Virus record (IMG/VR): IMGVR_UViG_3300046169_000007
Coordinates: 1 to 47,886 of that record
DNA from: a virus
Direction: 5' to 3' (one strand)
Length of the DNA stretch: 47,886 bases
This document shows positions 11,146-40,664 of this stretch, piece by piece. A program made the translations under genes and the position numbers. How positions within the stretch are numbered: the first letter of the stretch is position 1; every line of letters starts with the position of its first letter. The notes beneath the pieces were generated by a model. The model searched no databases. It saw only the letters and a list, made by a program, of their open reading frames with translations, and was not told the DNA's origin.

Positions 11146-14100
11146 TTACAAGTTACTTGCTTCTTCGTATATGTCCTTTAAATAGTCTATATAAGATATA
11201 TACAGAGTTAACTCCTGATAGTTCATATCCTGTGGACTAGCATCAATACCCCGTCTCTCCTTGAGCAAGCGCTTAGCCTCATTGCGTATCTCTTTGTTGG
11301 CTCTCTGCTCTGCTGTGCGTACCAGTGACAGCATGGCATTCTCTGTACCGCCACCTCCAGCCTTCATGTACTTACGTACCTCCGCCTTAGAGTCTGATAC
11401 TACATTCTTTAGCATCATTCTACGCTGAGTGAGGTTACCTTCTTGGAATGCTTTAGTGCGTAGAAGCTGATTTGTTTTCCTCTCTAACATAGGGGCAATG
11501 ATAGAGTTAAACGCCCTATCATAACCTGGGATCTTGCTACGCTCAGATGCCTGCCAAGGAAACATCTCAGCCATAGAGTATGCTTTCTCTGTACCAGTAC
11601 GTGCAGGCTTGATAGTCAAACCAAAGACACGAGCAAAGGGGTTAGCATCATATATCTGCCCCTCACGTGTAGCAACACGTAGCTCCTCACCTGTTACAGC
11701 ATCTACCTTATCGCTGAACACTTCAAACAGATTGTCTACATACTTAGTAGCAGACTGAGTAAAGACTTGGGAAGTTCCGTCTGCTTGACGTACATCCTTG
11801 GCTGCATCAGTACCCATAGCAAAGCCTACTACTTTGTTGACAGCATCTAGCGGTCTAGTGAAGCCTGATACAAAGTTACCGCCTATCTTAGCTAAGCCCA
11901 TAGCAGAAGCTTTACGTGCGCCTGCGTCTTGGTTTATCATGATGTCCAGAAGGTTGTTAATGTCATTACCAAACTGTGCGTCACGTGCCAACTGGCCTAC
12001 AGCTAACTGAGTACCCACCTCCTGTATCAACTCTGGTGGGACATCCTCATCACGAGCCATCATATTTACTATGCGACCTGCAGCTAGGAAGGCAGAGAAG
12101 GGGTAGGTGTTCTTAGCGTCCACAATAGTACCACCACCTACATCAATCTCATTGTAAGCTAGACCCTTATCACGGCGCTCTTGATCATATGCAGCAGCCA
12201 TGCCCAACGCAGATGTACCTATCGTCATACGAGCAACGGCTTCCATCTCTGAGAGATCTGCCTTCTGTCCCTTACGAGCACGTTGAACAAACTTTACAAA
12301 CTGTTCAGGTGCTGCCAAGGGAGACCATTGGTATGCTGTAGCAATAACGTTGTTAAAGAAACGCCCAAACGGCAGGATAGTACCTAAGCCAGGTATGCTT
12401 GAGAATGTCTCAACACCATTTGCTAGTTGCCGCACTAATTCAGGTTGGCTCTTAGCAGTGTAGTCCTTAGAGAACACAGACTTGAGTGTTGTATCTAAGG
12501 CAGACTGCATCACCTCATCATCAAGAAGGGTATCATCTGTACCGTTGATGACTTCTTTGAGGGTCTTGCCATGTTTAAAACGTACTGCCTTATCCAACTC
12601 ACCCATAAACATCTGTGACTTAGTAAAGGTATCTTGAATACGCACACCTGTAATAGTGTTAGCTGCGTTTGTTACCGCTTCTATGTTTTTAAACGCTGTG
12701 TTTGTAGGGTCAATACCGTGACGTTTAGCTGTAGCATCTACACCACCTGCAAAGGTTTCAAACAATGCCTTCTCAATGTCAGGGTTTTGTTCTAACAGTT
12801 TAAGATACGCATCACGTGTTGTATACGGATCTGCAAAGTTACGGATCTTCTGACCTTGAATAGTAGTAAGCGCTCTCATACGGCGGAACGCTTCCTTAGA
12901 TGCAGCCTTATTAGTAACAGATGTACCGATACCTTGAAGCCCATACATACCAGCATTGAATATATCTGCAAGGGTTTGACCTGCAGCAAACTGACCGTAG
13001 CCTGCAATGTTAAGTGCTGTTGTAGCAGGGGATGAAACAAGCAAGCGTTTCCATACACCCTGTGTATACTTGAGGTATTCTTTTTTCTCTGCAGGTGTAG
13101 TGTTCTCTTCTACATTCTTCATGGTAGCTTCAAGTGCGTCAGAGGACGCAACAATGCCGGAGTCTATGGTACGGCGTAGCTGTGACATTACGTTTAATTG
13201 CTTACCAGCATCACTAATACGAGCAGCAATAAGATCACTAAGGTTAATGCCTACCTCATCATAGTCACCTAAGTGTACCCCTATACGTTTCTTTATAATA
13301 GTGTTTGCTTTTGCTAGATCCTCTTGGGGCATGTAACGGATTACGTTAGTAATGAAGTCTGTTGTCTTTAAGTTACGGTCTACCTTGTAGCCCATATCCT
13401 TTACAACTTTACCGACACCACCCTTACCATCTTCACCAATAATGATATGCTTGATAAGTGATGCTGTAATACCACCCTCCCCATCAAAGCTTGCACCACG
13501 TGCTACTTTATCTTCCCATGTAGATACCGCATCTACTATCGCCTTTGACGCCTTCTTAGCTTCCGTAGCTTTAAGGAAAGGTGTAGCCTCTTCAATGGAC
13601 ACGTTAGCTAGTCGCTCAAGAGGATCACCTGCATCAGCAAAACCAGAAGAGCCACGGAACTTACCAAAGCCTAGCTGTGCTGCACCAGCAACACCACCCA
13701 GTAAGGATGAGAATGCAGTTTGTGCTCCACTATATGACTCCTGTGCATTCACCTCTAACCTAGCGTTCTGGTTCATTACATCCTGTAACATAGCAGCACT
13801 AGCATCAAGCGCAGTAGTTTGCTTCAAGGCTCTCTTACCTGCCTGCTTAAACAACTCGTCTTGAGCAGAAAGCATAGACTGTTTAGCTAAAGCACGTGGC
13901 CCTTCAAGTGCCATCTTAGCTTCTACTTGAGCAGCAATCTTGTCTGCTTGTGTCTTAGTGTAGCCTTTAGTCAGCGCACGATCAGCAGCCTCTATGCCTG
14001 CCTTCTTTGCAGCCTCTTGAGCAGCTTTTTTATTAGCACCACTCTTTAGTGCTTCACGTCCAGCATTACGTACAGCAGCTTTGATTACTTGCTTACCACC

Positions 14101-16566: not shown

Positions 16567-16989
16567 TTACTTAGTGAAACCTGCGCCAAAGTATAAACCT
16601 ACAATGGCGGAAACGATGTGTGTGTCTAGGGGTGTGATAACGAACCCACGTGCTGCCTGCCACTGTACTGTGCCATCGCCACCAAAGATCCAATTGAATA
16701 GGCCACCATGTACTTCTGTGTAACCTACAATAACGCTAACCTCAGGATACCATACAGCCACAAGCTTTGGCAAGACTATAATAGCAAAGATTGCAGATAA
16801 AGCAATGAGCCTACGTGTCCATGCGAAGTGTGTGTCTGTCTTGCCATGCTCACGTGCTTGGTTTGTAGCACCGATTAGCATCTCTTGTTGCTTAGCTTTG
16901 TTCTTAGCGTTCTGTCCTACCATAGACATAACCCCACCTAGCACGGTAGAGAATAGCATGGTGATAAGTTCTAGAGGTAGGCCGAACAT
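16567..16989 (-). CDS. membrane protein, holin candidate (140 aa)
   Basis: Hydrophobic segments at about residues 4-24 (LPLELITMLFSTVLGGVMSMV), 60-80 (LIALSAIFAIIVLPKLVAVWY) and 115-137 (FVITPLDTHIVSAIVGLYFG), with a charged loop rich in Lys and Gln between the first two. Three membrane segments and this size fit class I holins. The gene follows the lysozyme-domain protein directly, its ATG overlapping that stop by one base. Conserved GLYFGAGF ends are familiar from marine phages. No holin family can be confirmed by eye, so lysis timing is an inference from topology and neighbourhood. Confidence 0.65.
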   Translation of the reverse strand: MFGLPLELITMLFSTVLGGVMSMVGQNAKNKAKQQEMLIGATNQAREHGKTDTHFAWTRRLIALSAIFAIIVLPKLVAVWYPEVSVIVGYTEVHGGLFNWIFGGDGTVQWQAARGFVITPLDTHIVSAIVGLYFGAGFTK

Positions 16990-18899
16990 TAGTTACGTGC
17001 CTGTGGTCTAGGTGAGAACATCAATTCTTCTTTACCTAGATTATTACCGTTAATGTCAATCCAACCATCAGGTGAAGAAGGCGCGGATGTAGTCTTTATG
17101 GTTTTTAACAGGGTTCCGTCTTTGGTAAACAGCTTGGTCTCTTTACCTCGCTGTTCTATGAAGGCAACTTTCTTATCTAGAGGAAGTAGTCGGTTAGCCA
17201 TCCTAGAACGTCTAGCCACAAGACCTCTAACAGGTTTCCCGCTCTCTGTGTTATGTTTAGTTAGATCTAACACATTATCAACTACTCTATCTTCAGGCTT
17301 TTTGTTTGCTTCCGCTGCCCATGCTTTAATCCCTGACCATCCTAAAGCTCCGCCGCCGCCGTTCCACGCAATATCAAGAAGACCTTCTTTAGCCGCCTCA
17401 GATAAAGTATCCATATCATATACGTCAGCTACCTTCTTGTTAAACTCATTTACTACTGCTGCAGACCATTCCAAGTCGGACTTAAACAAGTTACGATCTA
17501 CACCTTCTTTAGATATGTTTGATGTATCTACATTAGCTTTAGAAAACTTGTTTGTGGCTTTACCGTTAGAGTCAACGTAACCATTCTTTTTAAGCCATTT
17601 TCCTCTACTAGCTCTGTTATCTGGTACATCTAAGCCATCAATTTTTAGACCCTTATCTGGTACAATCCCATATGCAAGTGTTACGTTCTCCCAGTCCTTA
17701 CCTATATGAGGCTCTAAACCCTCTACAGTTTCAAACTCTTTCATGACACTACCTACAGTGTTTCCATAACGAGTTGAAACATCGTCTATATTCTTTAGAT
17801 CAGGTCTAGCTTTAGGGCGTGTCATAAGCCCTGCAGCACCCGTCTCATCATCTATGTCTACAAACTGAAGGTTAGACGTATCAACGTCACCCTCTGCAAA
17901 GTTCATAGTACCTGCAGCCTTCTTGCGTTCTGCTCTACCCTTCATGTACTCAGCAAGCTGTACTTTATCTGGTACATACTTAAAGAAGTCAGGGAGAGAA
18001 CTCTCAGGCTGTGCGTCTAGGAAGTATTCTAGCTCTGATTTAGCTTGCTTCTCTACGTCTGTCTTAGGTGGGAACATACCAAAGAGTTTATTTATACCCT
18101 CCATGATAAGTCCCGCACGTTTCCTACCCATGTAACTCGCAGCCTCTGGGATGCTCAGTACTTCTGGAAGCTCTCGTGCTGGGGTCTCGCCTTTAGTATC
18201 AAACCTACGACTCATCAATCCTTTAGGCTGCTCCTCATCTATGTCTTCAAACATGTAGCTGCCGTCCATGCCTTCAAACATCTTATCTTCAGGTAGTTCA
18301 TCTACAGTGATAGGCTCAGGCTGCAAAGCTGCCTGCAGTACAGACATATCAATGTTAGTCTCTGGTTCTTCCTGTGTCTGCATACCTTGATACACATCAG
18401 GTATACCTAAAGCATCACGTAGTGCATCATCTACTGCAGTGCGTTGTAGATAGTCTTTAATCTCTTGTGTGTTGTCTGGAGCAGCTACATAGGGTGCCTT
18501 AAATATATCACGGCTATATAGATCTATACCTCTACCTGCTCTACCGCCTCTACCTGTATCCTGAGGTAGTGTAGCACCTGCAGCTTCAAACACTCTAGCA
18601 ATACGATCCTGTCTCTCTGCTTCAATCTGTGCAGGTGTAGGTGCAGCAGGGGCAGTTACAGCAGGCGCAGGTGGTTGCACTAAAGATGGAGCTTGGTAGC
18701 TGTTGTTGTCATTATCATTGTTATTGCTATACGTGTTACCAAAGTTTACAGTACTAGCGCCGGGACTAGTCTCTGTAAAGATATTGCCTGAACCGAACTC
18801 ATCGCCAGAGTAATAGGATGAGCTACTTGGCTTAGGTGTAGGTCGCGCTCTAGGTCGTGTAATGCCTGAGGGTTTATATCCATAATCTTGAAATGGCAT
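16989..18899 (-). CDS. virion protein with C-terminal GH24-type lysozyme domain
   Basis: The start is ATG 18899 with AAGGA upstream; earlier in-frame starts lie inside the previous gene. The 636-residue product has a Pro/Ser/Asn-rich disordered first third (PRARPTPKPSSSSYYSG), an acidic middle, and a muramidase-like domain from about residue 380. Glu393 (VEGLEPH), Asp402 (GKDW) and Thr407 (NVTLAYG) mirror the Glu-Asp-Thr triad of T4 lysozyme, and the end RGLVARRSRMANRLL is like the GH24 closing helix with its paired arginines. It may open the cell wall during ejection or serve as the endolysin; no separate endolysin gene is visible. A holin-like gene follows. Confidence 0.75.
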   Translation of the reverse strand: MPFQDYGYKPSGITRPRARPTPKPSSSSYYSGDEFGSGNIFTETSPGASTVNFGNTYSNNNDNDNNSYQAPSLVQPPAPAVTAPAAPTPAQIEAERQDRIARVFEAAGATLPQDTGRGGRAGRGIDLYSRDIFKAPYVAAPDNTQEIKDYLQRTAVDDALRDALGIPDVYQGMQTQEEPETNIDMSVLQAALQPEPITVDELPEDKMFEGMDGSYMFEDIDEEQPKGLMSRRFDTKGETPARELPEVLSIPEAASYMGRKRAGLIMEGINKLFGMFPPKTDVEKQAKSELEYFLDAQPESSLPDFFKYVPDKVQLAEYMKGRAERKKAAGTMNFAEGDVDTSNLQFVDIDDETGAAGLMTRPKARPDLKNIDDVSTRYGNTVGSVMKEFETVEGLEPHIGKDWENVTLAYGIVPDKGLKIDGLDVPDNRASRGKWLKKNGYVDSNGKATNKFSKANVDTSNISKEGVDRNLFKSDLEWSAAVVNEFNKKVADVYDMDTLSEAAKEGLLDIAWNGGGGALGWSGIKAWAAEANKKPEDRVVDNVLDLTKHNTESGKPVRGLVARRSRMANRLLPLDKKVAFIEQRGKETKLFTKDGTLLKTIKTTSAPSSPDGWIDINGNNLGKEELMFSPRPQARN

Positions 18900-18912
18900 A
18901 ATATTATCCTTA

Positions 18913-20964
18913 TTAAACGAATATCTCTTCAAGTGCTCTATCTGCCATTGCAGTAAGTAACTTTCCGCTTGCAGAGGCAAGAGGATCTTCGGCAGAATCA
19001 ACCTTAGCATCAGCAGCAATTTTAGCAACGAGAACATTTGATTCCCTCTCTGCAGCGGATTCACCGGAACTCCATGCCCAGCTAAGTATATCACGTTCTC
19101 GCTGTAACATACTATTATAACCTGTCATTGTAAAGTTATTTGCAGCCAATACTGCATCCCGGTTTGCTTGGTTGTCTGCAGCATTCTCAGCAGTAGTAAA
19201 CTTGTTTATCCACTCAGCATTTGCTTGTGCTACAACTAAATGGTTCTGTGCATTGAACTGGTCACGTGCATTACTCTGCGTAGTGTTAAACTGTGCTAAG
19301 CTGTTAGCTTCACCTGCATTGAAGCGTGCCAAAGCATTAGCTTGCTCTGAGTTAAACTGCGATACTTGTGCAGCAAGAGAGCTAAAGAACTGGTTAGTCT
19401 GATTCTCAGAGGTAGCATTAAACTGTAAAGCAGCGTTCTCAGCGGCTTGGTCACTCAGCATAGCGTTAACCATCTCTTGTGTTTTAAACATAGATGTCTG
19501 TTGCTCGTTGTCTAAGTTACGCATGTCCATACTAAGGAACGCATTAGCTGTCTGTACCTGAGCTTGCTGACGGTTGTTGAGGTTGGTTACATCTACCTGT
19601 GACATAGCTGCAACATCAGCCATGATCTTAGCATTCTTAGCGCTAAGGTTTTCTAGGTCTACAGTCTGTGCCATCTGTGCATTCTCTAGTGCAACCTGTA
19701 CATCTGCACTAAAGTTCATGTTAGCAATATCACTGATCTTAGCAGCGTTAGTAACACGTGTCTGGAAGTCTTGTGTAAACTCTAGGTTAAGAAACTCAGC
19801 ACGTTTCTCTGCAGCAAACACTGCAGCCTGTTGGCGGTTGCTCAGGTTCTGCATCTCAAATGAGGCAGCGGTCTGTGCATCCTGTACAGCGATAGGTAAC
19901 GCACTCTCCATAGCAGCTTGAATAATAGCTTGACCTGCCATAGATGAAGCACCTAGACCACGTGCAGCCATAATAGCTGTAGCAGAACGCATAGCACCAG
20001 CAGCCCATGCAGGAGGTTCATTACCCTCAAACTGCTCCATCAATCCTGCAAGCTGACCCTGTACAGTAGCCTCTGTAGAAGGCGCACCTGTAGCAGCAGC
20101 AAAGTTAGTCTCTGTACGTACACGCTCCATGTCTACAGTAGGGCCAGCAATCATCTCGCCTTCCTGTACAGCACGAGGTGCAGGAGCTTCTACTGTACGA
20201 GCTTGTTCAATAGTCTCTGGTGCTACTTCCAGTTGAGCTAAGTCTGTAGGCTGCATAGTAGCAGCTTGTGCTTGAGCAGCTTCACTAGGAGCACCTGTAG
20301 CAGCAGTTAAATCGCTTACTGCCTCTGCAATAGGATCTGTTACAGTCTGTGCAGTCACTGCAGCAGCAGGTTGAGGTGCAGCAGCTAAGGCAGGTGCAGC
20401 AGGTGTTGCAGCCGTAGGGGTTGCGGTAGCAAGGGGAGCAGTCATCTGGCCTGTAGTAGGATCAATAGTACCCGCTGCAATCTGAGCAGGTGTTGCTGTT
20501 ACTACATCAGCAGTCTGTGTGATAGACATAGGATCTGCAATAGACCTAGCACGTACTTCAGGTGTATCTACCGAGCTAGTTAGATTAGCACGAGCAGAAC
20601 TAAGAGCAGCCTCTGATTGTGTCAGGGCTACTTGTGCAGCATTAACTGCAGACATAAGGGATGTATCTTCTGGGTTAGCAGCAGCAGCAAGTTGAGCAGC
20701 AGATAGGGCATTACGCTTTTCTGTTACAGCAGCTTGTGCTGTGTCTACAGAAGAAGTGAGACCCCCTTCTGCCATACCCATGCGGTTACCCTCAATGCGC
20801 TGTCTTGCAGCAAGAGTGTATCTGCCCATCTTAGCAGCAGCGCTAGGATTAGACGCTAAGAAAGCGTTAATAGACTTTTGATCCATAGGGCCAGTGTACC
20901 CTAAAGCAGGTAGAATCTTCTTCTCCATTGCTTCCTGTTTGAATCCTGCAAACTTCTTAGCCAT
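18913..20964 (-). CDS. Ala/Gln-rich repetitive internal virion protein
   Basis: A 683-residue protein, start at 20964 with AAGGAA. The N-terminus (KKFAGFKQEAMEKKILPALGY, then INAFLASNP) resembles ends I associate with marine podovirus structural proteins. Residues 80-350 are low-complexity Ala/Thr/Gln/Pro, then a long helical part with about 30-residue repeats containing L-x-N-x-QQ and QFN elements (NLSNRQQAAVF, NLNNRQQAQVQ, NLDNEQQTSMF, then QFNSEQANALARFNAGEAN). No catalytic motif. Position beside core proteins suggests it is packed in the head and ejected, like T7 gp14-gp16, but this is inferred. A candidate promoter lies just upstream. Confidence 0.65.
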   Translation of the reverse strand: MAKKFAGFKQEAMEKKILPALGYTGPMDQKSINAFLASNPSAAAKMGRYTLAARQRIEGNRMGMAEGGLTSSVDTAQAAVTEKRNALSAAQLAAAANPEDTSLMSAVNAAQVALTQSEAALSSARANLTSSVDTPEVRARSIADPMSITQTADVVTATPAQIAAGTIDPTTGQMTAPLATATPTAATPAAPALAAAPQPAAAVTAQTVTDPIAEAVSDLTAATGAPSEAAQAQAATMQPTDLAQLEVAPETIEQARTVEAPAPRAVQEGEMIAGPTVDMERVRTETNFAAATGAPSTEATVQGQLAGLMEQFEGNEPPAWAAGAMRSATAIMAARGLGASSMAGQAIIQAAMESALPIAVQDAQTAASFEMQNLSNRQQAAVFAAEKRAEFLNLEFTQDFQTRVTNAAKISDIANMNFSADVQVALENAQMAQTVDLENLSAKNAKIMADVAAMSQVDVTNLNNRQQAQVQTANAFLSMDMRNLDNEQQTSMFKTQEMVNAMLSDQAAENAALQFNATSENQTNQFFSSLAAQVSQFNSEQANALARFNAGEANSLAQFNTTQSNARDQFNAQNHLVVAQANAEWINKFTTAENAADNQANRDAVLAANNFTMTGYNSMLQRERDILSWAWSSGESAAERESNVLVAKIAADAKVDSAEDPLASASGKLLTAMADRALEEIFV

Positions 20965-31679: not shown

Positions 31680-32729
31680 TTAAGCAGCGTTGTAACGTAC
31701 TGTGAGGAGTGCCTCTGGACGCAGAATCTTGCGACCATAGAGGTGCATACCACGCACGATGTCAGCAAAACTGTCTGGGTCACGGTAGTTCTCAACTTTG
31801 TTGATCTGCTCAGCAGAAGCAACAGCATCGTCCTGACCAGCTACGATAACACCGTAGTTAGCGTCTTGTGCAGTTGTACCAGAAGTACCAGCACCTGTAC
31901 CTTTAGCAGGAAGAGCATTGGACTGATAAACACGGAAGCCGTGAATGTTGTTCAACACCAGACCGTTTTGCAGGCCAGAACCACCGAAGTCACCGTTCAG
32001 CATACGTGAGTCTTCATCTTTCAGCATCTCAATAAATACTGGATCAAGAACAACCCAACGTCCACGTGATTCTACATTTGCTTGATCCATTTTACGAGCC
32101 ATACGTGCAAGTACAGTCAATGGGGAAACAGTTGTAGCTGACAGGGCAGTTGCACCTGGCAAGCGTGGAGCCAATGGAACGGAATCGCCTGCAGTAGCTG
32201 TACCAGAGATGGTCAAGTTACCGAAGTCAGTTGCGTCCAAGTGGTTTGCAGTGATGTATTCACCAGTAGCTGTCAAAGCAGTTTGCTTGTCGCCAGCAGA
32301 AGTAGTGATGAAAGCACCTGCAGAAGTGTGACCTGAGAGGTAAGACAATACGTCTGTGTCCATTGCGTCTGCCATTTTATATGCAGCACGATCAGCGGCC
32401 AAAGATGTGAAGTCTACGTTTGCAAACTGCTCTTCAATGTCATCCATTTTGAAAGCAAAGTAGTTTGCTTGGTCAATGGTGAGCGAGAAGTCAGAGTCAT
32501 CAAGCTTCTCTACGGAGATACCTGTGTGACGCTGCAGAGCGTTGACGGTTACGTCTGGCTCTTTTTGAATGCGAACAGTATCGCCTTGGTTTGCAATTTC
32601 ACCAAAATATGAATTGTTAGTGATTGCGTTAGTTACAGCAGAGCGGCGCAATGCGATCTGTGCTTGTTTGGAGTAAATAATCGGGGAGAAGTTCCCGTCA
32701 AATCCACCACCAGCGGTTCCAATAGCCAT
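31680..32729 (-). CDS. major capsid protein
   Basis: A 349-residue protein directly after the scaffold gene, with a strong AAAGGAG site. Features match podovirus coat proteins: N-terminal FSPIIYSKQAQIALRRSAV, then GDTVRIQKEPDVTV and ADRAAYKMADAMDTDVLSYL, the WVVLDPVFIEMLKDEDSR block, and ILRPEALLTVRYNAA at the end. Base use is slightly more GC-rich and regular than in neighbouring genes, as expected for the most highly expressed gene. HK97-like fold by family knowledge. A candidate promoter and hairpin lie in its 237-base leader. Confidence 0.9.
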   Translation of the reverse strand: MAIGTAGGGFDGNFSPIIYSKQAQIALRRSAVTNAITNNSYFGEIANQGDTVRIQKEPDVTVNALQRHTGISVEKLDDSDFSLTIDQANYFAFKMDDIEEQFANVDFTSLAADRAAYKMADAMDTDVLSYLSGHTSAGAFITTSAGDKQTALTATGEYITANHLDATDFGNLTISGTATAGDSVPLAPRLPGATALSATTVSPLTVLARMARKMDQANVESRGRWVVLDPVFIEMLKDEDSRMLNGDFGGSGLQNGLVLNNIHGFRVYQSNALPAKGTGAGTSGTTAQDANYGVIVAGQDDAVASAEQINKVENYRDPDSFADIVRGMHLYGRKILRPEALLTVRYNAA

Positions 32730-32966: not shown

Positions 32967-33893
32967 TTATTTCTTTGATACATCGTAAATAAATTTACCA
33001 GAGCGCTGAGCATCAAAGATCTCATCCATGCGCTGCTCGTATTCCTTCATGGACATCTTAGCTACCTGTGACTCCCTAATATACTTAGCTGAGTCATCTG
33101 TGTCAGGGGTAGAACGTCCTTTAGCTTTAACAGAGGATGCTGCTGCTTTATCAGAGCTAGACACCTTCTTAGTCTTAATACCTTGATCTGCTTTATAAAG
33201 ATCAATAACACGTGCAACAGACTTAGCATCTTCACTGTTTTCATAGAGAGCATCCTGTACAACTTTAGGCTGTTTCTCTGCCCAAGTGTGGAATGCATCG
33301 TCTGCACGAATGTCGTGAAAGTCGGGGTGAAGTGAGACTAACTCTGCTTCTGCCTTCTCACGCTTAGCTGTAGCTCGTAGGGATTCAATCTCCTTTAAAC
33401 GCCCATCTAGTTCTGAGGAACGCTCATTAGCTTTTTTATCAGCAATAGCTTCTACAATGCCTGCAATGTCTGGGTATTTCTTAGCCCATGCATCTACTTC
33501 ATCTTCTGACTTAGGTAGTACAAGCTCATTCTTAGTAGCTGCCTCAAGCTGAGACTGTAGTTTATCAAGCTGTGCCTGAAACTCTTTCTCTTTCTCTTGA
33601 GTGTGTCGGCGTAGATCACCATAACGTTTCTTGAAGTTCTTCTCTTCAGCACTTAGATCTTCTTCTTGTGCTTCAGCTTTTGGTTCTTCTTTTTGTTTGG
33701 TAACACTCTCTGCCTGAACTGAGGGTTCGCTAGACTCTGAGCTATCGGGTTCCGCTTCAACAGCTTCTTCTTCTGTTTCATCTTGTGTTGCTCCTGCTTG
33801 TTTAAGCAGTTCCCGTAGCTCCTCCTCATCCCGCTGTACACGAGACAGGTTGCGTTTGTGTGACATTGAGTCCGTTTGAATGGCTTCCGACAT
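32967..33893 (-). CDS. capsid assembly scaffolding protein
   Basis: A 308-residue, strongly charged, helical protein between the portal-side genes and capsid. It has an acidic first third (QDETEEEAVEAEPDSSESSE), a long coiled coil (KEKEFQAQLDKLQSQLEAAT and ERSSELDGRLKEIESLRATA), and a basic C-terminal helix region (EYEQRMDEIFDAQRSGKF), the usual plan of scaffolds whose tail touches the coat protein. AAGGAG lies before the ATG. Scaffold is needed in procapsids and is removed later. Assignment rests on composition and gene order, both typical. Confidence 0.8.
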   Translation of the reverse strand: MSEAIQTDSMSHKRNLSRVQRDEEELRELLKQAGATQDETEEEAVEAEPDSSESSEPSVQAESVTKQKEEPKAEAQEEDLSAEEKNFKKRYGDLRRHTQEKEKEFQAQLDKLQSQLEAATKNELVLPKSEDEVDAWAKKYPDIAGIVEAIADKKANERSSELDGRLKEIESLRATAKREKAEAELVSLHPDFHDIRADDAFHTWAEKQPKVVQDALYENSEDAKSVARVIDLYKADQGIKTKKVSSSDKAAASSVKAKGRSTPDTDDSAKYIRESQVAKMSMKEYEQRMDEIFDAQRSGKFIYDVSKK

Positions 33894-33941: not shown

Positions 33942-33973
33942 ATTATATGGTAGTCTTAGTAGGTATTAGTCAA
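33942..33973 (-). promoter_or_regulatory. candidate promoter before scaffold
   Basis: Minus strand TATAAT (33947-33942) is a perfect -10. TTGACT (33973-33968) lies 20 bases upstream, a spacing longer than ideal, so the -35 is doubtful. It falls at the end of the 612-residue frame and 49 bases before the scaffold start, in a leader with the conserved hairpin. Confidence 0.35.
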
Positions 33974-35804
33974 AGTACCCTGATTTAGAACCTGCAAGGC
34001 TGCCCTTCTTGGTTTGTGCGCCTAAGCCTGCAGATATGTTTCTTTCTCTAGTAGCTGCAGCAGCCCTAGCATTAGCCATAGCTGTTTCGTATGTACTAGT
34101 ATCGTTGTCATTATTGGCGGAGGATGCGGCTGCAGCCAAGGATGCCTGAGCGCTTACTTGTGCTTGTGCTGCTGCTATAGCTCTTTCTTGTGCTGCTATT
34201 TGTGCATCAATCTCTGCTATTTTAGCCTCACGTTCTGCTTTCTTTTCAGCCATAAGTTTATTAATAGTATCTCTGCGTTGATCTGCAATTACCTTATCTT
34301 CAGAAGCCAAGAAAGCACTCGCGTTATCTGTTTCTGGTGTTGTAACTGTAGGTGCTTCTGGCTGATATACATATGGCTCAGGTGTCCCACCTTTAGTATC
34401 TAACATAGGAGAAAGACCTGCTAATGGGCCTTTGTAGTCTCTAGCACCAGGTTCATCATTTAAAGAGGTAAGCTCAATAGGTTCAGGGTCAGAGATAGGT
34501 GCCATACCCGTAGGCATTTCTCCTGCAAACGCTGCTCTTACACTAGCATCAATAGCTTCAGCATCTACCTGTGCATCAACGGCTTGAGCGGCTTGTTGGG
34601 CAGGTGAGAGGTAATCCCTACCTAGAACTTCCTCTGCTTCACTCTGATCTTTAAATAGCTTATCGGCTAAGCTTGGTTTGTCTGCTCTCTGTATTTCTAG
34701 GAGGTCTTCATAGAAAGTCTTATCATATTCAGATAAATCCTCTTCTTTAAGCCTACGAGCTAATTCATTCTCAACCTGAGTTGCTTGATGCCACATAGCT
34801 GCTTTAACTGCTAGACCCGCAAAAGGGTTCAACAAACCTGCTATAAGAGGCATTGTACGAGGCGCTAGTTCTTGGCCTTGCTTAACCATATCTCTTAACT
34901 CATCAGGTGTCAACTCTTTGTAGTTAATAGCTTCTGTTTTTGGCATGTCAGCGACAGTTATATCATCGCTGTCTCCACCCATAGGTTTAGCTTCGCCTGT
35001 ATAGATAGGTTGCTGTTGTGCAACACTAGACGCTGCAACGTTACCTTGTTCTGCATTCGTAGCAGCAGCAATGTCTGTGTCTGTAACAACAGGTACATAA
35101 CCCTCTGGTATGATAGACATAGGCATACCATTAAAGAACATGATAGTGATCTCTTCCCCTGCAGGATTTCTATACTGACGATACTCCATAAGACCACCAG
35201 CTTGATTAGAAAGGATATCAGAGGCTGAACCTACGACACCACCTTCTGCATAACCATCAACTACCTCAAAGTCACTATCTTCAAACATAATATCTAGATC
35301 GTCTTGAGGCTCTATGATAGCCATACCCACAGCAGGGATAGGCTCACCACCGATACGACCATTAGCTTCCATACTAGCAAAGCCACGCTTAGCTTCCGCA
35401 CGAATGTCCTCAAAGAACTTGACACCAAAGAAGCGTACAACGTCAGCAGGTACAACATACTCACCTTCACTCAGTTGAGCAGGGATGTCATCACGTACTT
35501 CTTCTGGCATAGAGCCGATAGGTACTTCGTTGCCTGACACAGGGTCTACACGTTGACCTTCATCACCGAAGGCCATTTCCATTTGTTCATCCATTACTGC
35601 TCCGCCCTCTGCATAGCCTTTGGTAGGCAATTTGTGTACAGTAACCCCTGCTGCACCTAACTTGTTATTCACTACATCAAAACTTTCACCTAGCGTTTCT
35701 TGTATGTAAGTTTTTAGCTCTGCTTGTGTAAAACCCTTTTGGTAAGTGTCTTTTGTTGTAATGATAGACATATCTTCTGGCCCAGGTTTACCTTTTGCAG
35801 CCAT
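33966..35804 (-). CDS. C-terminal part of a methyltransferase-containing virion-like protein
   Basis: The frame is open upstream of its first Met (35804) to about 35953, where it continues a class I methyltransferase domain begun in the gene before: SYKKITNLNVLNVVP, IGRILEPNGRAVITTRGRDV, then MSIITTKDTYQKGFTQ. After about 75 residues it changes into a virion-type protein: YAEGGAVMDEQMEMAFGDEG, EEVRDDIPAQLSEGEYVVPA, ADVVRFFGVKFFEDI, then low complexity and an Ala-rich coiled coil (IAEIDAQIAAQERAIAAAQA). The YAEGG...VVPADVV block is common in marine phage structural proteins. Gene order (portal, this, scaffold) suggests a head component. The true start is probably ATG 36754 across a frameshift. 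Confidence 0.65.
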   Translation of the reverse strand: MAAKGKPGPEDMSIITTKDTYQKGFTQAELKTYIQETLGESFDVVNNKLGAAGVTVHKLPTKGYAEGGAVMDEQMEMAFGDEGQRVDPVSGNEVPIGSMPEEVRDDIPAQLSEGEYVVPADVVRFFGVKFFEDIRAEAKRGFASMEANGRIGGEPIPAVGMAIIEPQDDLDIMFEDSDFEVVDGYAEGGVVGSASDILSNQAGGLMEYRQYRNPAGEEITIMFFNGMPMSIIPEGYVPVVTDTDIAAATNAEQGNVAASSVAQQQPIYTGEAKPMGGDSDDITVADMPKTEAINYKELTPDELRDMVKQGQELAPRTMPLIAGLLNPFAGLAVKAAMWHQATQVENELARRLKEEDLSEYDKTFYEDLLEIQRADKPSLADKLFKDQSEAEEVLGRDYLSPAQQAAQAVDAQVDAEAIDASVRAAFAGEMPTGMAPISDPEPIELTSLNDEPGARDYKGPLAGLSPMLDTKGGTPEPYVYQPEAPTVTTPETDNASAFLASEDKVIADQRRDTINKLMAEKKAEREAKIAEIDAQIAAQERAIAAAQAQVSAQASLAAAASSANNDNDTSTYETAMANARAAAATRERNISAGLGAQTKKGSLAGSKSGYFD

Positions 35805-35923
35805 AACATCTCTGCCTCTAGTGGTAATAACAGCCCTACCATTAGGTTCTAAGATACGTCCTATGTCTTTTACTATGGTATCTCTTACGTCTTTAGGTAC
35901 TACATTAAGAACATTAAGGTTAG

Positions 35924-36754
35924 TTATCTTTTTGTAGGAGTTCGAGGGTATTTCACTAGATTGTTATAGTCTGGTTTAAAACCTTCTTTAGGAAAAGGCT
36001 CATAAGTATCGAAGTTGAGTTCCTTTTTAGAAAGACCTAAACCTGCACCAAAATCTAAAGTCTTACCCTCCCCAGACAATTCTGTTAAGAGGTTATCTGC
36101 TTTCTTATAAGTAGGGAGTGTACCAGCAATCTGTGTACGAGCAGCATTTTCTGCGGGGGGTAAATCCATAGACATAGGACGAGGAGTAGAAGGAATATCT
36201 CCAGTACCGTAAAACACTCTACCGTCAGGCATCTGTATAGTAAGCGTAGAAGGGTCTGCACTAGGGTTAATACGATCACCTAACTTTATATCAAGATCAC
36301 CTAACTTTTTACGAAGTTTAGCATTGCTAATATCTCCACTTGCCCACTCATCAATAATGTCTTCCACTTTAACAGTAAAGTCATAATCATAAGGCTCACC
36401 CATATCGAAGCCTAGATCCTTTTTACTGGTAACTATCTTTGACGAACTTTTTAATGGCCCTTTTATCATACCTTTAACAACAGGTGCTGCACCGGGTATA
36501 ATACTAGCAGCTTCAACAGCACCCATACCAATAGCTTTTAAGTAGTCAGGATCATCACTACTCAATTCATCTTTGATATCTGAAATACCTTTGACAGTAC
36601 CTACAGGTGTAAAGTCTAACCCAGCTTCCAGCATCTGAACACTTAACGGATCATCTACGTTCTCGTAGTCTTCACTAAACTGCGGAGCGCCGGGTGCTAC
36701 CTCTGCACGTTCTTCATCCGTCATATCAACGAGGCGTTTACGATAATCAGCCAT
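35924..36754 (-). CDS. N-terminal part of the methyltransferase-containing virion-like protein
   Basis: A 276-residue frame, overlapping the small gene before it by eight bases. Residues 1-120 are helical and virion-like (FTPVGTVKGISDIKDELSSD, AAPVVKGMIKGPLKSSSK). Residues 120-220 are acidic with KLGDLDIKLGDRINPSADP. From about 228 comes SAM-binding motif I (TLDFGAGLGLS) and the acidic strand end FDTYEPFP. Near 35953 the frame breaks: adding one base after GTG gives EIPSNSYKKITNLNVLNVVP in the next frame, so the last eight residues (YPRTPTKR) are probably false. Repaired, the protein is about 929 residues. A minus-one programmed shift cannot be excluded, but no classic slippery heptamer is seen. 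Confidence 0.65.
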   Translation of the reverse strand: MADYRKRLVDMTDEERAEVAPGAPQFSEDYENVDDPLSVQMLEAGLDFTPVGTVKGISDIKDELSSDDPDYLKAIGMGAVEAASIIPGAAPVVKGMIKGPLKSSSKIVTSKKDLGFDMGEPYDYDFTVKVEDIIDEWASGDISNAKLRKKLGDLDIKLGDRINPSADPSTLTIQMPDGRVFYGTGDIPSTPRPMSMDLPPAENAARTQIAGTLPTYKKADNLLTELSGEGKTLDFGAGLGLSKKELNFDTYEPFPKEGFKPDYNNLVKYPRTPTKR

Positions 36755-36935
36755 TCACTTTATCCCTCAAGTACTGTAGTTGCCGTAGAGTACGTATAGC
36801 ACCTTGATGCCTATATAACTCAGACGTGTCTGTAACACTCTCCATGCTACGGTGTTGTGTGGAGATGCGCTCCTCAAGCTCAACAAGAAACGCATCCCAG
36901 ATCTGTTTATCGTTAACTAGCTTTTTAAGCGACAT
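36747..36935 (-). CDS. small hypothetical protein after portal (62 aa)
   Basis: ATG 36935 overlaps the portal stop by 11 bases; a longer in-frame start at 36977 is deep in the portal gene. The product is helical and charged (LKKLVNDKQIWDAFLVELEE, HQGAIRTLRQLQYLRDKV), with IRTLRQLQYLRD resembling short proteins found next to portal genes in many podoviruses and siphoviruses. Unknown function; perhaps a head-completion or chaperone factor. Confidence 0.65.
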   Translation of the reverse strand: MSLKKLVNDKQIWDAFLVELEERISTQHRSMESVTDTSELYRHQGAIRTLRQLQYLRDKVNG

Positions 36936-39054
36936 TACCAGTGAACCCTTGCTCACCCGGTGTAGGCGCAGTACCAATACCTATCTGAGAGCCACCACCA
37001 CCTGAGGTGTCCTGTACGCCCTGTGGAGCCTGTCCTTCTGGTGCTGGGCTACCCTGAGGCATATTTACGCCATCTGGCCCTGTAGGAGCCGCTGGTGGCT
37101 GCTGGAACCCTTTGAGGATCTCAGCTTGGATAGCAGCATCCTGCATAGAGTTAGTAACCTTGTCAGGATCAAGATCCATAGACTTAGCAATCTCACGAAT
37201 GATATAGTCCATCTTAGCGAAGGGAGCTAATACTGGATTCTGTGCAACCTGCAAGAACTGCATCAAGCGCTGTGACCGTACTTCGTTAGCCATTAAGCTC
37301 TCTGTACCAGAAGCATGTACCTCTAAGTCACCACGAATCTGACTATCAAAGTCAAACTGCATGTTGAATGAGAAGAAAGCTTTACCTAAGGGGCGGATAA
37401 GATAATCATCAACGTTCTTAACTACCGTCCGAATAGAACCGTTAGCAGCAGACATAAGCATAGAAATACCAGAAGCTGTACGCCCAACGCCAGATACTCC
37501 GGTTTGTCCGTGAGCGAAGCTAGGGAATCCAGTACTCTCATCTGCTAATACTCGTGCCTTATCAAACAGTTGCATGTTCTCCTGTGCAACATTCGGGAAC
37601 TTAGTACCAAAGATGCCTTGACCTGGAGCACCACCTTGGCGGCGGAAGACCTTACCGGGGTACACAGATAAGTCTTGACCGGGAACCATGTTAGTCTCAT
37701 CTACTTCAATGATAAGGTTACCAGACAGTGCAGCGTTGTCAATAGCCATACGCATAAAGCCATTCATCAGAGTCTGTGTGTCATCCATGTTCTCAGCAAT
37801 ACCTACGCCAAAGAAGCTGTAGGGGTTATGCTCATAGGGAACAGCATAGTAAGGAATACGTGTTGGTTTGAATGGGTTAAGTACAAACCGTAGTACCTCA
37901 CCATTACATACCCATACGTTGCAGTTAACTTCATCCAAGTCTTTCAATGACTTAGGAATATCTACACCGTGCTCTTCAAGTACGTCTACGTCTACAAAGC
38001 CCCAGAACTCCAACACTTCCCAGCGTTCAGAGTTTGGCTGTGTATCGTCATCCTCCATAGTCATTTCCCAGTACTTCTGGATGTAGTCTGGCCCTTTATC
38101 AATAGCCAAACCAATAGAGTCAGACATGAAGTAAGGACGCCCTTTAAGCGCACGTAATTGTGTACGTGACATCTTATGGCGCTGAACTACGTATTCTGCA
38201 TCATCCATAGACTTAGCTTCTGGGTCAGGGTAAAAGTCCCATACAGAAACGTGGCTACACTCAGGAACAGTCTTTACTAGAGGGTCATACTCACCTTGGT
38301 CATCCCAATTAGGGTATTCCTTATCTACAGCAAACGGGCCTTTCATAACACCTGTACCAAGCAAAGCCATCTCAAATGCCATAGAGCGTAGGTGTACAGA
38401 AGCACCTGACTCTTGAAGTTGATCGTGGATCTTCTTTTCCATCTTCTTAGCAGCAATCATAGCTGGATGGAATGTTACAGTAGTAGGTGTAGTACCATCA
38501 CCCTCAACGATCTTATCAGATACCGCTTCAAGCTTAGTAGTTAATGGGCCTAAACGCTTAGCTAAGTCAGTAAGAGTTTCACCCGGTTTTAACTGTGTTT
38601 CACCATCTATCAAGTAAGGTTGTGCAGTTTTAGTTTGCATTACATCACTTAGAGCCGAACCTGCTGCTTTAGCATTAGGGTCTAGGTTGATGTGTACAGA
38701 CTCAGACACACCGTCAGGTAATACAGAAGGATTTACGGAGAGAGGAAACTTGTTATTACCAAACAGTACATCTACGATCTGACCGTATGCAGCAAGTGTC
38801 TTGGTCTTAGTAACCTTAACAAACACACGGGACTTCTCAGTATCTGTAAACTGTACATCTTTACCATACAAACCACGATAGTTACGGTAAGCTTTAAGCC
38901 ACCGCTCTTCGTCTGCATAGCGAGAGTCTTCTGCACGTTTATAGCGTTCTGCTACAAAAGACACTACACTGGATTTAGTCTCAAAGATTTTGTCTTCGCT
39001 ATCTTCTGCAGCTACGACTTCATCTGTTTCAAACATTTCTTCTTGTTCTGCCAT
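36925..39054 (-). CDS. portal (head-tail connector) protein
   Basis: A 709-residue protein directly after terminase. ATG 39054 is chosen, two bases after the terminase stop; TTG 39060 is possible. N-terminal acidic region, then KRAEDSRYADEERWLKAYRN, SRVFVKVTKTKTLAAYGQIVD, the central YAVPYEHNPYSFFGVGIAEN with DDTQTLMNGFMRMAIDNAAL, and FVKVT/TASGISMLMSAANGSI in the helical stem. The Gly/Pro/Gln-rich tail (PAPEGQAPQGVQD) is disordered. The residue pattern and length fit the large portal family of P22/HMO-2011-type podoviruses more than the roughly 536-residue T7 gp8. It forms the dodecameric DNA channel. Confidence 0.88.
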   Translation of the reverse strand: MAEQEEMFETDEVVAAEDSEDKIFETKSSVVSFVAERYKRAEDSRYADEERWLKAYRNYRGLYGKDVQFTDTEKSRVFVKVTKTKTLAAYGQIVDVLFGNNKFPLSVNPSVLPDGVSESVHINLDPNAKAAGSALSDVMQTKTAQPYLIDGETQLKPGETLTDLAKRLGPLTTKLEAVSDKIVEGDGTTPTTVTFHPAMIAAKKMEKKIHDQLQESGASVHLRSMAFEMALLGTGVMKGPFAVDKEYPNWDDQGEYDPLVKTVPECSHVSVWDFYPDPEAKSMDDAEYVVQRHKMSRTQLRALKGRPYFMSDSIGLAIDKGPDYIQKYWEMTMEDDDTQPNSERWEVLEFWGFVDVDVLEEHGVDIPKSLKDLDEVNCNVWVCNGEVLRFVLNPFKPTRIPYYAVPYEHNPYSFFGVGIAENMDDTQTLMNGFMRMAIDNAALSGNLIIEVDETNMVPGQDLSVYPGKVFRRQGGAPGQGIFGTKFPNVAQENMQLFDKARVLADESTGFPSFAHGQTGVSGVGRTASGISMLMSAANGSIRTVVKNVDDYLIRPLGKAFFSFNMQFDFDSQIRGDLEVHASGTESLMANEVRSQRLMQFLQVAQNPVLAPFAKMDYIIREIAKSMDLDPDKVTNSMQDAAIQAEILKGFQQPPAAPTGPDGVNMPQGSPAPEGQAPQGVQDTSGGGGSQIGIGTAPTPGEQGFTGNVA

Positions 39055-39056
39055 TA

Positions 39057-40664
39057 TCAATACCCGAATGATGGATCACTAGCTTGAAAACCAGTGCGTT
39101 GTTTTGCTGGGTTGTAATCCCATATGCTGCTACGTGGACGTGTCATTATACCATATCTTAGAGCGTCATAAAGGTGATCCTCTGCGTGAGTATCAACATC
39201 TTCTGGGTTTTTCTTATCCAGAGGAATACTAGGAATCTGTGCAATAGTGTTAGTGCAGTTGTCCATAAACACAAGTTGTGGCTTCTCAGTGAACTCATCC
39301 ACCTTCAATCGCCTATGTATCTCGTTCTTACCTGCGACACGTGAGCCTCTTGACCTGTCAGACGGACGCCAGCGGCATCCCTTTTGATTCATCTGCTCTG
39401 CCAAGCTAGGCCCAGTGTCGCCACGGTTGTGCCATAAAGAACTATCTAGCACCCCGTATCTCATTGTACCATCTTTTGATTCTGCTTCCAAGATTAAATC
39501 TGCTAAGTCAGAAGCTGTAACTTTAGAGACATACATCTCACGGTATACAATTACTTGTTCGTCAGGAGCTACAGCAAACCACAGAACGCCAGTGTAACTA
39601 CCATACCCGTAATCACAAGCCCTAAACTTTGCCCAAGAGTCAGGGATCTCGAATGCGTCCACGACATGTACTTTTCTGTCAAACTCTGGAAAAGCGGCAC
39701 CCTCATTAATATCCCAGTTACCTTCAAGTAGCTGCTTACGCTGATGCTCCGGCAGAGAGAGAAGCATTGCTTCATAGTCTCCAGAGTCAGATAAGTACGG
39801 ATTGTCGAATAGAGAGGCTGGAATAAAGCGTCTTTTAAATAGAGGCTCACCCTCTTTACTGTGACCTTTAGGGAAGGTGATTGTTTCACCTGAGTCGATA
39901 TCTGTTGCCCAAAAAGCTTTGCCTGCTCTTTCAGGGTCAATAAACATTTTCTTAACCCAAGCATGTCCTGCTCCTCCGGGGTTTGTTGTGGCTCTCATGT
40001 AAAGCCCAAGCTCTGACGCATGTGCAGACCTCAAGCGTGATCTCATATAACCCCAAGCGTAAGGGCTAGTCCATTGTGTAAGTTCGTCAAAACCAATCCA
40101 ATTAAAAGCCTGCCCTTGGTAACGGGTAACATCTGTGTCTTTATCCAAGTACGACATCCAGAGGCGACCACCTCTAGGAGATATCCATTGCGACTTACGC
40201 TCCGACCATTTGATTCCCGGTACTGCACGTGGGTACAACTCCTGTGACTTCTGTATTAGTTCTCTTAGTTCTTCTGTAGTGTGACGTACAAGTAGCCCAG
40301 AGAAGTTAGGATCATTCAAACCGTGTAGTGGATCAGCTAACATAGCGTATGACTTACCCCCACCAGCGGCACCACCATAAAGTACTTCACGCTCTGAGGC
40401 ACTAAGGAAGCTTGTTTGGGGGCCGGGGTTTGGCTTGAACACAACATCCATAGCCGCATCTACATCATACTCAGGGGCTTTGACTTGCGCAGGAACAGTC
40501 TCTACCTTGGGGGTGGCGACTACTTCAACTGTCTCTGTCAATTTCTGCGTATGCCCCGACCCCTTTGGCTTCAAGTTTTTCGATTTCCTCAAGGGTTTCT
40601 TTGAGCCACTTGGCAAGCTTGCGTTTAATTGCAATTGTTTTTTTACGTCTTTGCTCAACTTCAA
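39057..40664 (-). CDS. terL: terminase large subunit
   Basis: DNA-packaging motor. The ATPase has YGGAAGGGKSYAML (Walker A), NWIGFDEL (Walker B) and the coupling motif RATTNPGG. The nuclease has ACDYGYGSYTG, YGVLDSSLW and DHLYDALRYG with acidic metal ligands. The ORF start (40664) gives 535 residues, but the first 46 overlap a well-formed upstream gene by 140 bases. The Lys/Pro-rich N-terminus has no conserved motif, so the real start may be further in (TTG near 40540 or ATG 40451). Conserved sequence begins around FKPNPGPQTSFLSASEREV. The portal starts two bases after its stop. Confidence 0.95.
   Translation of the reverse strand: MKLSKDVKKQLQLNASLPSGSKKPLRKSKNLKPKGSGHTQKLTETVEVVATPKVETVPAQVKAPEYDVDAAMDVVFKPNPGPQTSFLSASEREVLYGGAAGGGKSYAMLADPLHGLNDPNFSGLLVRHTTEELRELIQKSQELYPRAVPGIKWSERKSQWISPRGGRLWMSYLDKDTDVTRYQGQAFNWIGFDELTQWTSPYAWGYMRSRLRSAHASELGLYMRATTNPGGAGHAWVKKMFIDPERAGKAFWATDIDSGETITFPKGHSKEGEPLFKRRFIPASLFDNPYLSDSGDYEAMLLSLPEHQRKQLLEGNWDINEGAAFPEFDRKVHVVDAFEIPDSWAKFRACDYGYGSYTGVLWFAVAPDEQVIVYREMYVSKVTASDLADLILEAESKDGTMRYGVLDSSLWHNRGDTGPSLAEQMNQKGCRWRPSDRSRGSRVAGKNEIHRRLKVDEFTEKPQLVFMDNCTNTIAQIPSIPLDKKNPEDVDTHAEDHLYDALRYGIMTRPRSSIWDYNPAKQRTGFQASDPSFGY

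What the first reader, a model, noticed from the sequence alone, without database searches (positions are those of the whole stretch)
33966..36754. SAM methyltransferase embedded in a virion-type protein, split by a frameshift
Joining two adjacent frames gives about 929 residues: a virion-like N-terminus, then a class I methyltransferase (motif I LDFGAGLGLS, YEP, NLNVLNVV, motif with LEPNGRAVITTRG), then YAEGG...VVPADVV and a coiled coil typical of structural proteins, placed between portal and scaffold. The NL-VLNVV part resembles methyltransferases linked to DNA phosphorothioation loci. A methyltransferase carried in the head could modify host or phage nucleic acid or protein at ejection. 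The two halves differ by a minus-one frame near 35953; an added G after GTG restores it.
Basis: partly seen in the sequence, partly recalled or inferred. Interest (0 to 1): 0.65.

Follow-up and report, generated by a model that had tools for sequence, protein, structure and literature searches.

The report
Swappable methyltransferase cargo in phage head gene
An abundant group of ocean phages has a head-region gene with a swappable slot that sometimes carries a small methyltransferase, probably packed in the virus particle and delivered into the bacterium; the copy in this window is split by a one-base frameshift that intact relatives lack.

Summary
Two minus-strand ORFs (35924-36754; open 33966-35963) together encode an N-terminal hydrophobic segment, a class I SAM methyltransferase (MTase, 35631-36160) and a conserved 'YAEGG...EGEYVVPADVV' core, between portal and scaffold of an HMO-2011-type podovirus. 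The split is private to this copy: 79 of 80 IMG/VR relatives carry the whole MTase in one ORF and the 80th is cut by its contig end. Both halves are under strong purifying selection, so the shift is very recent or an assembly error. An AlphaFold model of an intact relative is confident (pLDDT 94.9) and has the MTase fold.

The wider finding is that the MTase is cargo in a variable slot. In 58 portal-centred loci the same gene has no cassette (24), the MTase (4) or other cargo: a second MTase, cell-wall hydrolase, ADP-ribosyltransferase-like and polyvalent-type domains. Phages 98-99% identical on both sides differ only in the cassette, including this window versus L002. The MTase also occurs beside or inside head-maturation, lysozyme and internal-virion proteins in unrelated phages.

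Best reading: a virion-delivered, polyvalent-type effector, substrate unknown and unlikely to be a DNA base. Packaging and activity are inferred, not shown. New variant of a known kind.

The parts
35924..36754 (-). ORF A: N-terminal region plus first part of the methyltransferase
   Evidence: intact single-ORF homologues
33966..35963 (-). ORF B frame (open from 35963, first ATG 35804): rest of the methyltransferase, YAEGG core, C-terminal coiled coil
35945..35965 (-). zone of the one-base frame change
   Evidence: comparison with intact relatives
36458..36619 (-). N-terminal hydrophobic Gly/Pro-rich segment that travels with cassettes (26 of 27 fused cassettes, 0 of 31 bare cores)
   Evidence: DUF4112 just below cut-off in relatives
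35631..36160 (-). class I SAM methyltransferase domain (split by the frameshift)
   Evidence: alignments; model of intact relative; Foldseek
35623..36449 (-). cassette region replaced by an unrelated LPD-like insert in the otherwise 98.6-99.2% identical phage L002
35340..35615 (-). conserved core: YAEGG...DPVSGNEVP...VRDDIPAQLSEGEYVVPADVVRFFG...
   Evidence: weak tape-measure PHROG match in relative L010
34104..34334 (-). C-terminal coiled-coil-like stretch
   Evidence: sub-threshold FlxA/PV-1 matches
36925..39060 (-). portal protein (upstream neighbour)
   Evidence: PHROGs portal E=1.8e-36
32967..33893 (-). putative scaffold (downstream neighbour)
   Evidence: synteny; phrog_13678 of unknown function
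31680..32729 (-). major head protein
   Evidence: PHROGs E=2.8e-54

Best explanation
The gene encodes a virion protein whose C-terminal core (YAEGG/VPADVV plus coiled coil) ties it to the capsid/portal interior, and whose N-terminal part is a replaceable cargo cassette: a hydrophobic segment followed by an effector domain. Here the effector is a compact class I SAM-dependent methyltransferase. Most likely the protein is built into the head during assembly and released with the DNA, so the methyltransferase acts on a host molecule (protein, RNA or small molecule rather than a DNA base) in the first minutes of infection. Phages exchange the cassette by recombination, as in polyvalent proteins. 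Shown by computation: the domain, its conserved SAM site, single-ORF architecture in relatives, genomic position, and cassette exchange between near-identical phages. Inferred: packaging, delivery, enzymatic activity and substrate. In this particular genome the enzyme would be broken if the frameshift is real; intact relatives exist.
For: Fold and SAM site: AF2 pLDDT 94.9 for an intact relative, with Foldseek hits to many SAM methyltransferases, best METTL6 E=1e-8; DxGxGxG, EP, LNV and QKGF motifs in all 48 distinct sequences. Position: portal | MTase ORF | scaffold | MCP across most IMG/VR loci with readable context. Virion context in unrelated phages: Myrna gp97 is a head-maturation-protease (E=9e-18) fusion just before minor and major capsid genes; HTVC103P gp52 ends in a phage lysozyme with an internal-virion-lysozyme match; CRP-3 gp36 has an N-terminal cell-wall hydrolase E=6e-16; L074 MTase ORF is followed by an internal virion protein E=4e-16. 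Polyvalent partners: ART-PolyVal and DUF7178 in one giant protein. Cassette exchange: window vs L002 (98.6-99.2% flanks), L109 vs L110 (MTase A vs B), L133 vs L136 (cassette vs none). Phage-specific: 302 IMG/VR relatives against 4 in 84,980 cellular genomes, two of those distant TIGR04096-like proteins. Precedents for virion-delivered effectors and polyvalent proteins: PMC5512222.
Against: No virion proteomics for any carrier was found. The core has no solved or annotated homologue, and the full-length model is uninformative (pLDDT 38). In some phages the MTase is a small stand-alone ORF beside the portal gene (L072, L073, L088, MJing1), which need not be packaged. No substrate evidence.
Confidence: 0.62

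Rival explanations
1. The MTase works during assembly, methylating a phage structural protein or the packaged genome inside the producing cell, and is not a delivered effector.
For: Position inside the head operon and fusion to a head-maturation protease in Myrna.
Against: Near-identical phages lack it and carry unrelated cargo or none at the same place, so assembly does not need it; partners include cell-wall hydrolase, lysozyme and ART-type domains that fit entry or host attack.
Confidence: 0.15
2. Anti-restriction DNA methylation at entry, like phage P1 DarB.
For: DarB is a head-borne methyltransferase in polyvalent proteins (PMC5512222).
Against: No D/N/S-PP-Y/F catalytic motif in the 30-sequence alignment, no target-recognition or helicase domain, only a bare Rossmann core; PDB neighbours are tRNA, small-molecule and protein MTases.
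Confidence: 0.08
3. Passenger: an ordinary cytoplasmic accessory MTase parked in a permissive, highly expressed head gene, with no role in the virion.
For: Stand-alone ORF versions exist next to portal.
Against: Repeated in-frame fusion to virion-type proteins in several unrelated phage groups, in the same class of genomic position.
Confidence: 0.12
4. The split is a real loss-of-function or programmed frameshift in this phage rather than a sequence error.
For: The shift is in the assembled contig; pseudogenisation of accessory cargo is plausible, as cassettes come and go.
Against: All readable relatives are unsplit, the junction is unseen elsewhere, and strong purifying selection acts on both halves; there is no need for programmed shifting when relatives use one frame.
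Confidence: 0.2
5. Assembly chimera: the MTase cassette of one phage was joined by the assembler into the backbone of another (L002-like).
For: Flanks are 98.6-99.2% identical to L002 up to sharp edges.
Against: The same order and the same C-terminal junction (VTVHKLP.KGYAEGG) occur in independently assembled relatives L005-L010, and two other near-identical pairs show comparable exchanges.
Confidence: 0.07

Closest known systems
Phage-type polyvalent proteins (Iyer et al. 2017, PMC5512222)
   Same: Multidomain phage proteins encoded among virion genes, with exchangeable effector domains; relatives contain ART-PolyVal, cell-wall hydrolase, lysozyme and LPD-like parts next to this MTase.
   Different: The MTase described there is a DarB-type DNA adenine MTase fused to a helicase; this is a different, compact class I MTase without DNA MTase motif. 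Packaging is untested here.
TIGR04096, DNA phosphorothioation-associated putative methyltransferase
   Same: Shared NxxLNV and (F/Y)QKGF..EL motifs; weak profile match (E=4.5e-5 to 0.0014).
   Different: 22 bits or less against a cut-off of 150; no dnd genes nearby; phage-specific; lacks the C-terminal half of TIGR04096.
P1 DarB / head-borne antirestriction MTase
   Same: MTase fused in a head protein.
   Different: DarB has an EcoKI/TaqI-like adenine MTase plus SWI2/SNF2 helicase; neither is present.
Mycobacteriophage Myrna gp97 (phrog_2774)
   Same: 48% identical MTase domain in a large head-operon protein.
   Different: Joined to a head-maturation protease domain instead of the YAEGG core; annotated 'tape measure'.
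HMO-2011-type phages (HMO-2011 gp49, CRP-207, CRP-3, CRP-738)
   Same: Same gene position and core; CRP-3 and CRP-738 carry the MTase.
   Different: HMO-2011 gp49 is the bare core without cassette; all annotated only as hypothetical protein.

Membership tests
Class I SAM-dependent methyltransferase | Rossmann-type MTase fold | tested here: met
   AF2 pLDDT 94.9 on intact relative L012; 660 PDB matches at E<=0.001, the 50 listed being mainly MTases
Class I SAM-dependent methyltransferase | SAM-binding motif I and acidic residue after strand 2 | tested here: met
   D36, G40, G42, E54 invariant in 30 sequences; motifs in 48/48
Class I SAM-dependent methyltransferase | methyl transfer activity | not testable with these tools
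   needs purified protein
Phage-type polyvalent protein | several functional domains in one large protein, with domains typical of the class | tested here: met
   in relatives: Hydrolase_2+MTase+DUF7178 (CRP-3), ART-PolyVal+MTase+DUF7178 (LS06), both; ART-PolyVal matches are below the gathering score. In the window itself only the MTase and core are recognised
Phage-type polyvalent protein | encoded among virion morphogenesis genes | tested here: met
   portal|X|scaffold|MCP
Phage-type polyvalent protein | packaged in the capsid and delivered | not testable with these tools
   no proteomics of a carrier found
DarB-like antirestriction MTase | DNA adenine MTase catalytic motif and SF2 helicase | tested here: not met
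   no such motif in alignment A2; no helicase match
TIGR04096 dnd_rel_methyl | score above curated cut-off of 150 bits | tested here: not met
   17.5 and 22.4 bits
TIGR04096 dnd_rel_methyl | neighbouring dnd genes | tested here: not met
   phage head operon only
Bacterial polymorphic toxin | recognised pre-toxin domain before the effector | tested here: not met
   N-terminal segment has no pre-toxin match; DUF4112 just below cut-off
HMO-2011-type phage | homologous terminase, portal and coat with same gene order | tested here: met
   CRP-207 81% DNA identity over terminase/portal; layouts

The most novel reading that the evidence does not exclude
HMO-2011-type phages have a dedicated, population-level swappable effector slot in a virion gene, and it delivers non-DNA methyltransferases (two divergent families) that modify a host molecule at entry as an undescribed host-takeover or counter-defence strategy.
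Probability: 0.4. Interest if true: 0.8.

Novelty: new variant of a known kind. Interest (0 to 1): 0.6.

Why it matters
HMO-2011-type phages are among the dominant marine phage groups (PMC9038755), and this gene is annotated only as a hypothetical protein in its isolates. Near-identical phages that differ only in this cassette form natural isogenic sets for asking what a virion-delivered effector does. If the protein is in the head, it adds a compact non-DNA methyltransferase to the known cargo of phage particles and shows that cargo is exchanged quickly in nature.

Tried and rejected
Two separate genes or a programmed frameshift: rejected because intact relatives read one frame. DNA MTase / DarB: no motif or helicase. 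Full TIGR04096 membership: far below cut-off. Pre-toxin domain at the N-terminus: suspected by eye, not supported by Pfam. Solved-structure homologue of the core: none. AlphaFold of the full-length intact protein: pLDDT 38, discarded. Search for the window's exact junction in other contigs: none. A search for TIGR04096 members by genome class failed on its input.

Full report
OBSERVATION. ORF A (35924-36754) ends inside a methyltransferase; ORF B is open from 35963 to 33966 and continues the same domain in the neighbouring frame. The window is an HMO-2011-type podovirus: Roseobacter phage CRP-207 is 81% identical over terminase and portal, and the gene order TerS-TerL-portal-X-scaffold-coat matches HMO-2011, CRP-3 and CRP-738. 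PHROGs supports portal and major head protein; the scaffold is named by synteny only.

THE SPLIT. Relatives from IMG/VR carry the whole MTase in one ORF within long proteins. Of 80 viral loci retrieved with the MTase profile, 79 have the full 177-position domain in one ORF and the last is cut by the end of its contig. Residue alignment puts the frame change of the window at about 35945-35965. The junction was not found in any other viral contig, with the caveat that records very near the window may be left out. The two halves match intact relatives at 80-95% identity, with dN/dS of 0.04-0.09 where synonymous sites were not saturated. The break is therefore very recent or an assembly error. Intact copies exist; I did not write out a mended version.

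THE ENZYME. The AlphaFold model of the domain from an intact relative (L012, 30-sequence alignment) has mean pLDDT 94.9 and a class I MTase fold. Foldseek finds many SAM methyltransferases, best METTL6 (E=1e-8, TM 0.64), then small-molecule and protein N-terminal MTases. D36, G40, G42 and E54 are invariant, and all 48 distinct sequences keep DxGxGxG, EP, LNV and QKGF. There is no DNA amino-MTase motif and no recognition domain. A distant link to TIGR04096 (phosphorothioation-associated) exists (E=4.5e-5 at best) but is far below that family's cut-off. The family is essentially viral: 302 IMG/VR relatives and 12 of 50,697 phage records, against 4 hits in genomes of 84,980 species, two of which are distant TIGR04096-like proteins.

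THE SLOT. I sampled the locus without regard to the MTase by starting from the portal. In 58 scorable loci the gene after the portal is a bare core in 24; 34 cassettes precede the core in the rest, fused to it or as a separate ORF. Four cassettes are this MTase. Others contain a second, divergent MTase (23% identity over 83 residues to the first; Pfam Methyltransf_23 E=9e-5 in L168), a SleB-type cell-wall hydrolase (E=2e-11), ART-PolyVal-like domains (E about 0.001, below gathering score), phrog_30118, and LPD-like inserts named by eye. A hydrophobic N-terminal segment accompanies 26 of 27 fused cassettes and none of 31 cassette-free cores, so it travels with the cargo; it lies just below the Pfam cut-off for DUF4112 in relatives. 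I infer, without proof, a role in membrane passage or packaging.

RAPID EXCHANGE. The window and L002 are 99.2% identical from 41306 to 36450 and 98.6% from 35622 to 31680; between them the window has the 827-bp MTase cassette and L002 an unrelated 1242-bp insert. L109 and L110 (about 96% flanks) exchange MTase A for MTase B after the same residue run ...KKVSRTD. L133 and L136 (99% flanks) differ by presence or absence of the cassette. This is exchange at strain level, confined to the N-terminal part of a head gene.

OTHER CARRIERS. In Mycobacterium phage Myrna the MTase sits in gp97 between a head-maturation-protease domain (E=9e-18) and a long tail, two genes before the major capsid gene. 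In pelagiphage HTVC103P it is in a 1671-aa protein ending in lysozyme with an internal-virion match. In CRP-3 it follows a cell-wall hydrolase, in LS06-2018-MD07 it is in a >3000-aa protein with ART-PolyVal-like and DUF7178 domains, and in L074 it is followed by an internal virion protein. In MJing1 and L073 it is a stand-alone ORF beside the portal gene. Different virion proteins have acquired the same enzyme repeatedly, which is the main indirect evidence that it belongs to the particle.

MECHANISM. Most likely the core anchors the protein in the head and the cargo is released with the DNA, as proposed for polyvalent proteins (PMC5512222), and the MTase then modifies a host molecule. Packaging, delivery, activity and substrate are inferred. 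I found no virion proteomics on any carrier; the Myrna capsid paper reports no MTase-bearing protein but did not look for one.

VERDICT. It is a new variant of a known kind: a polyvalent-type, swappable virion cargo with a methyltransferase not described in the passages of the polyvalent catalogue I read.

Noticed in passing
L107 3888-4418, L110 8691-9221, L168 5828-6349: A second, divergent class I methyltransferase (VVDIGGGRFDN, YDPFNR, NVLNVI) occupies the same cassette slot; L110 and L109 are about 96% identical around it but carry different MTases.
   Followed up: partly
L133 and L136: Two phages about 99% identical in portal and scaffold differ by presence or absence of the whole N-terminal cassette.
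   Followed up: partly
L113 3462-4190: Cassette with an HEYRH zinc-peptidase-like motif, without Pfam or PHROG match.
   Followed up: no
L118 9271-10980, L155 6591-8828, CRP-3 gp36 (L015 6645-10523): SleB-type cell wall hydrolase (PF07486) at the very N-terminus of the slot protein, suggesting a peptidoglycan-crossing activity on the same polypeptide.
   Followed up: partly
L017 3810-7445 (Myrna gp97): Annotated 'tape measure' but contains a head-maturation-protease domain and lies just upstream of the minor and major capsid genes; the annotation looks wrong.
   Followed up: partly
window 36747-36977: Small 76-aa ORF overlapping the portal end and the start of ORF A; similar small ORFs lie there in CRP-3 and CRP-738.
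   Followed up: no
window 11146-13914 and 16989-20964: Large minus-strand ORFs (922, 701, 683 aa) without any Pfam match in the late region.
   Followed up: no
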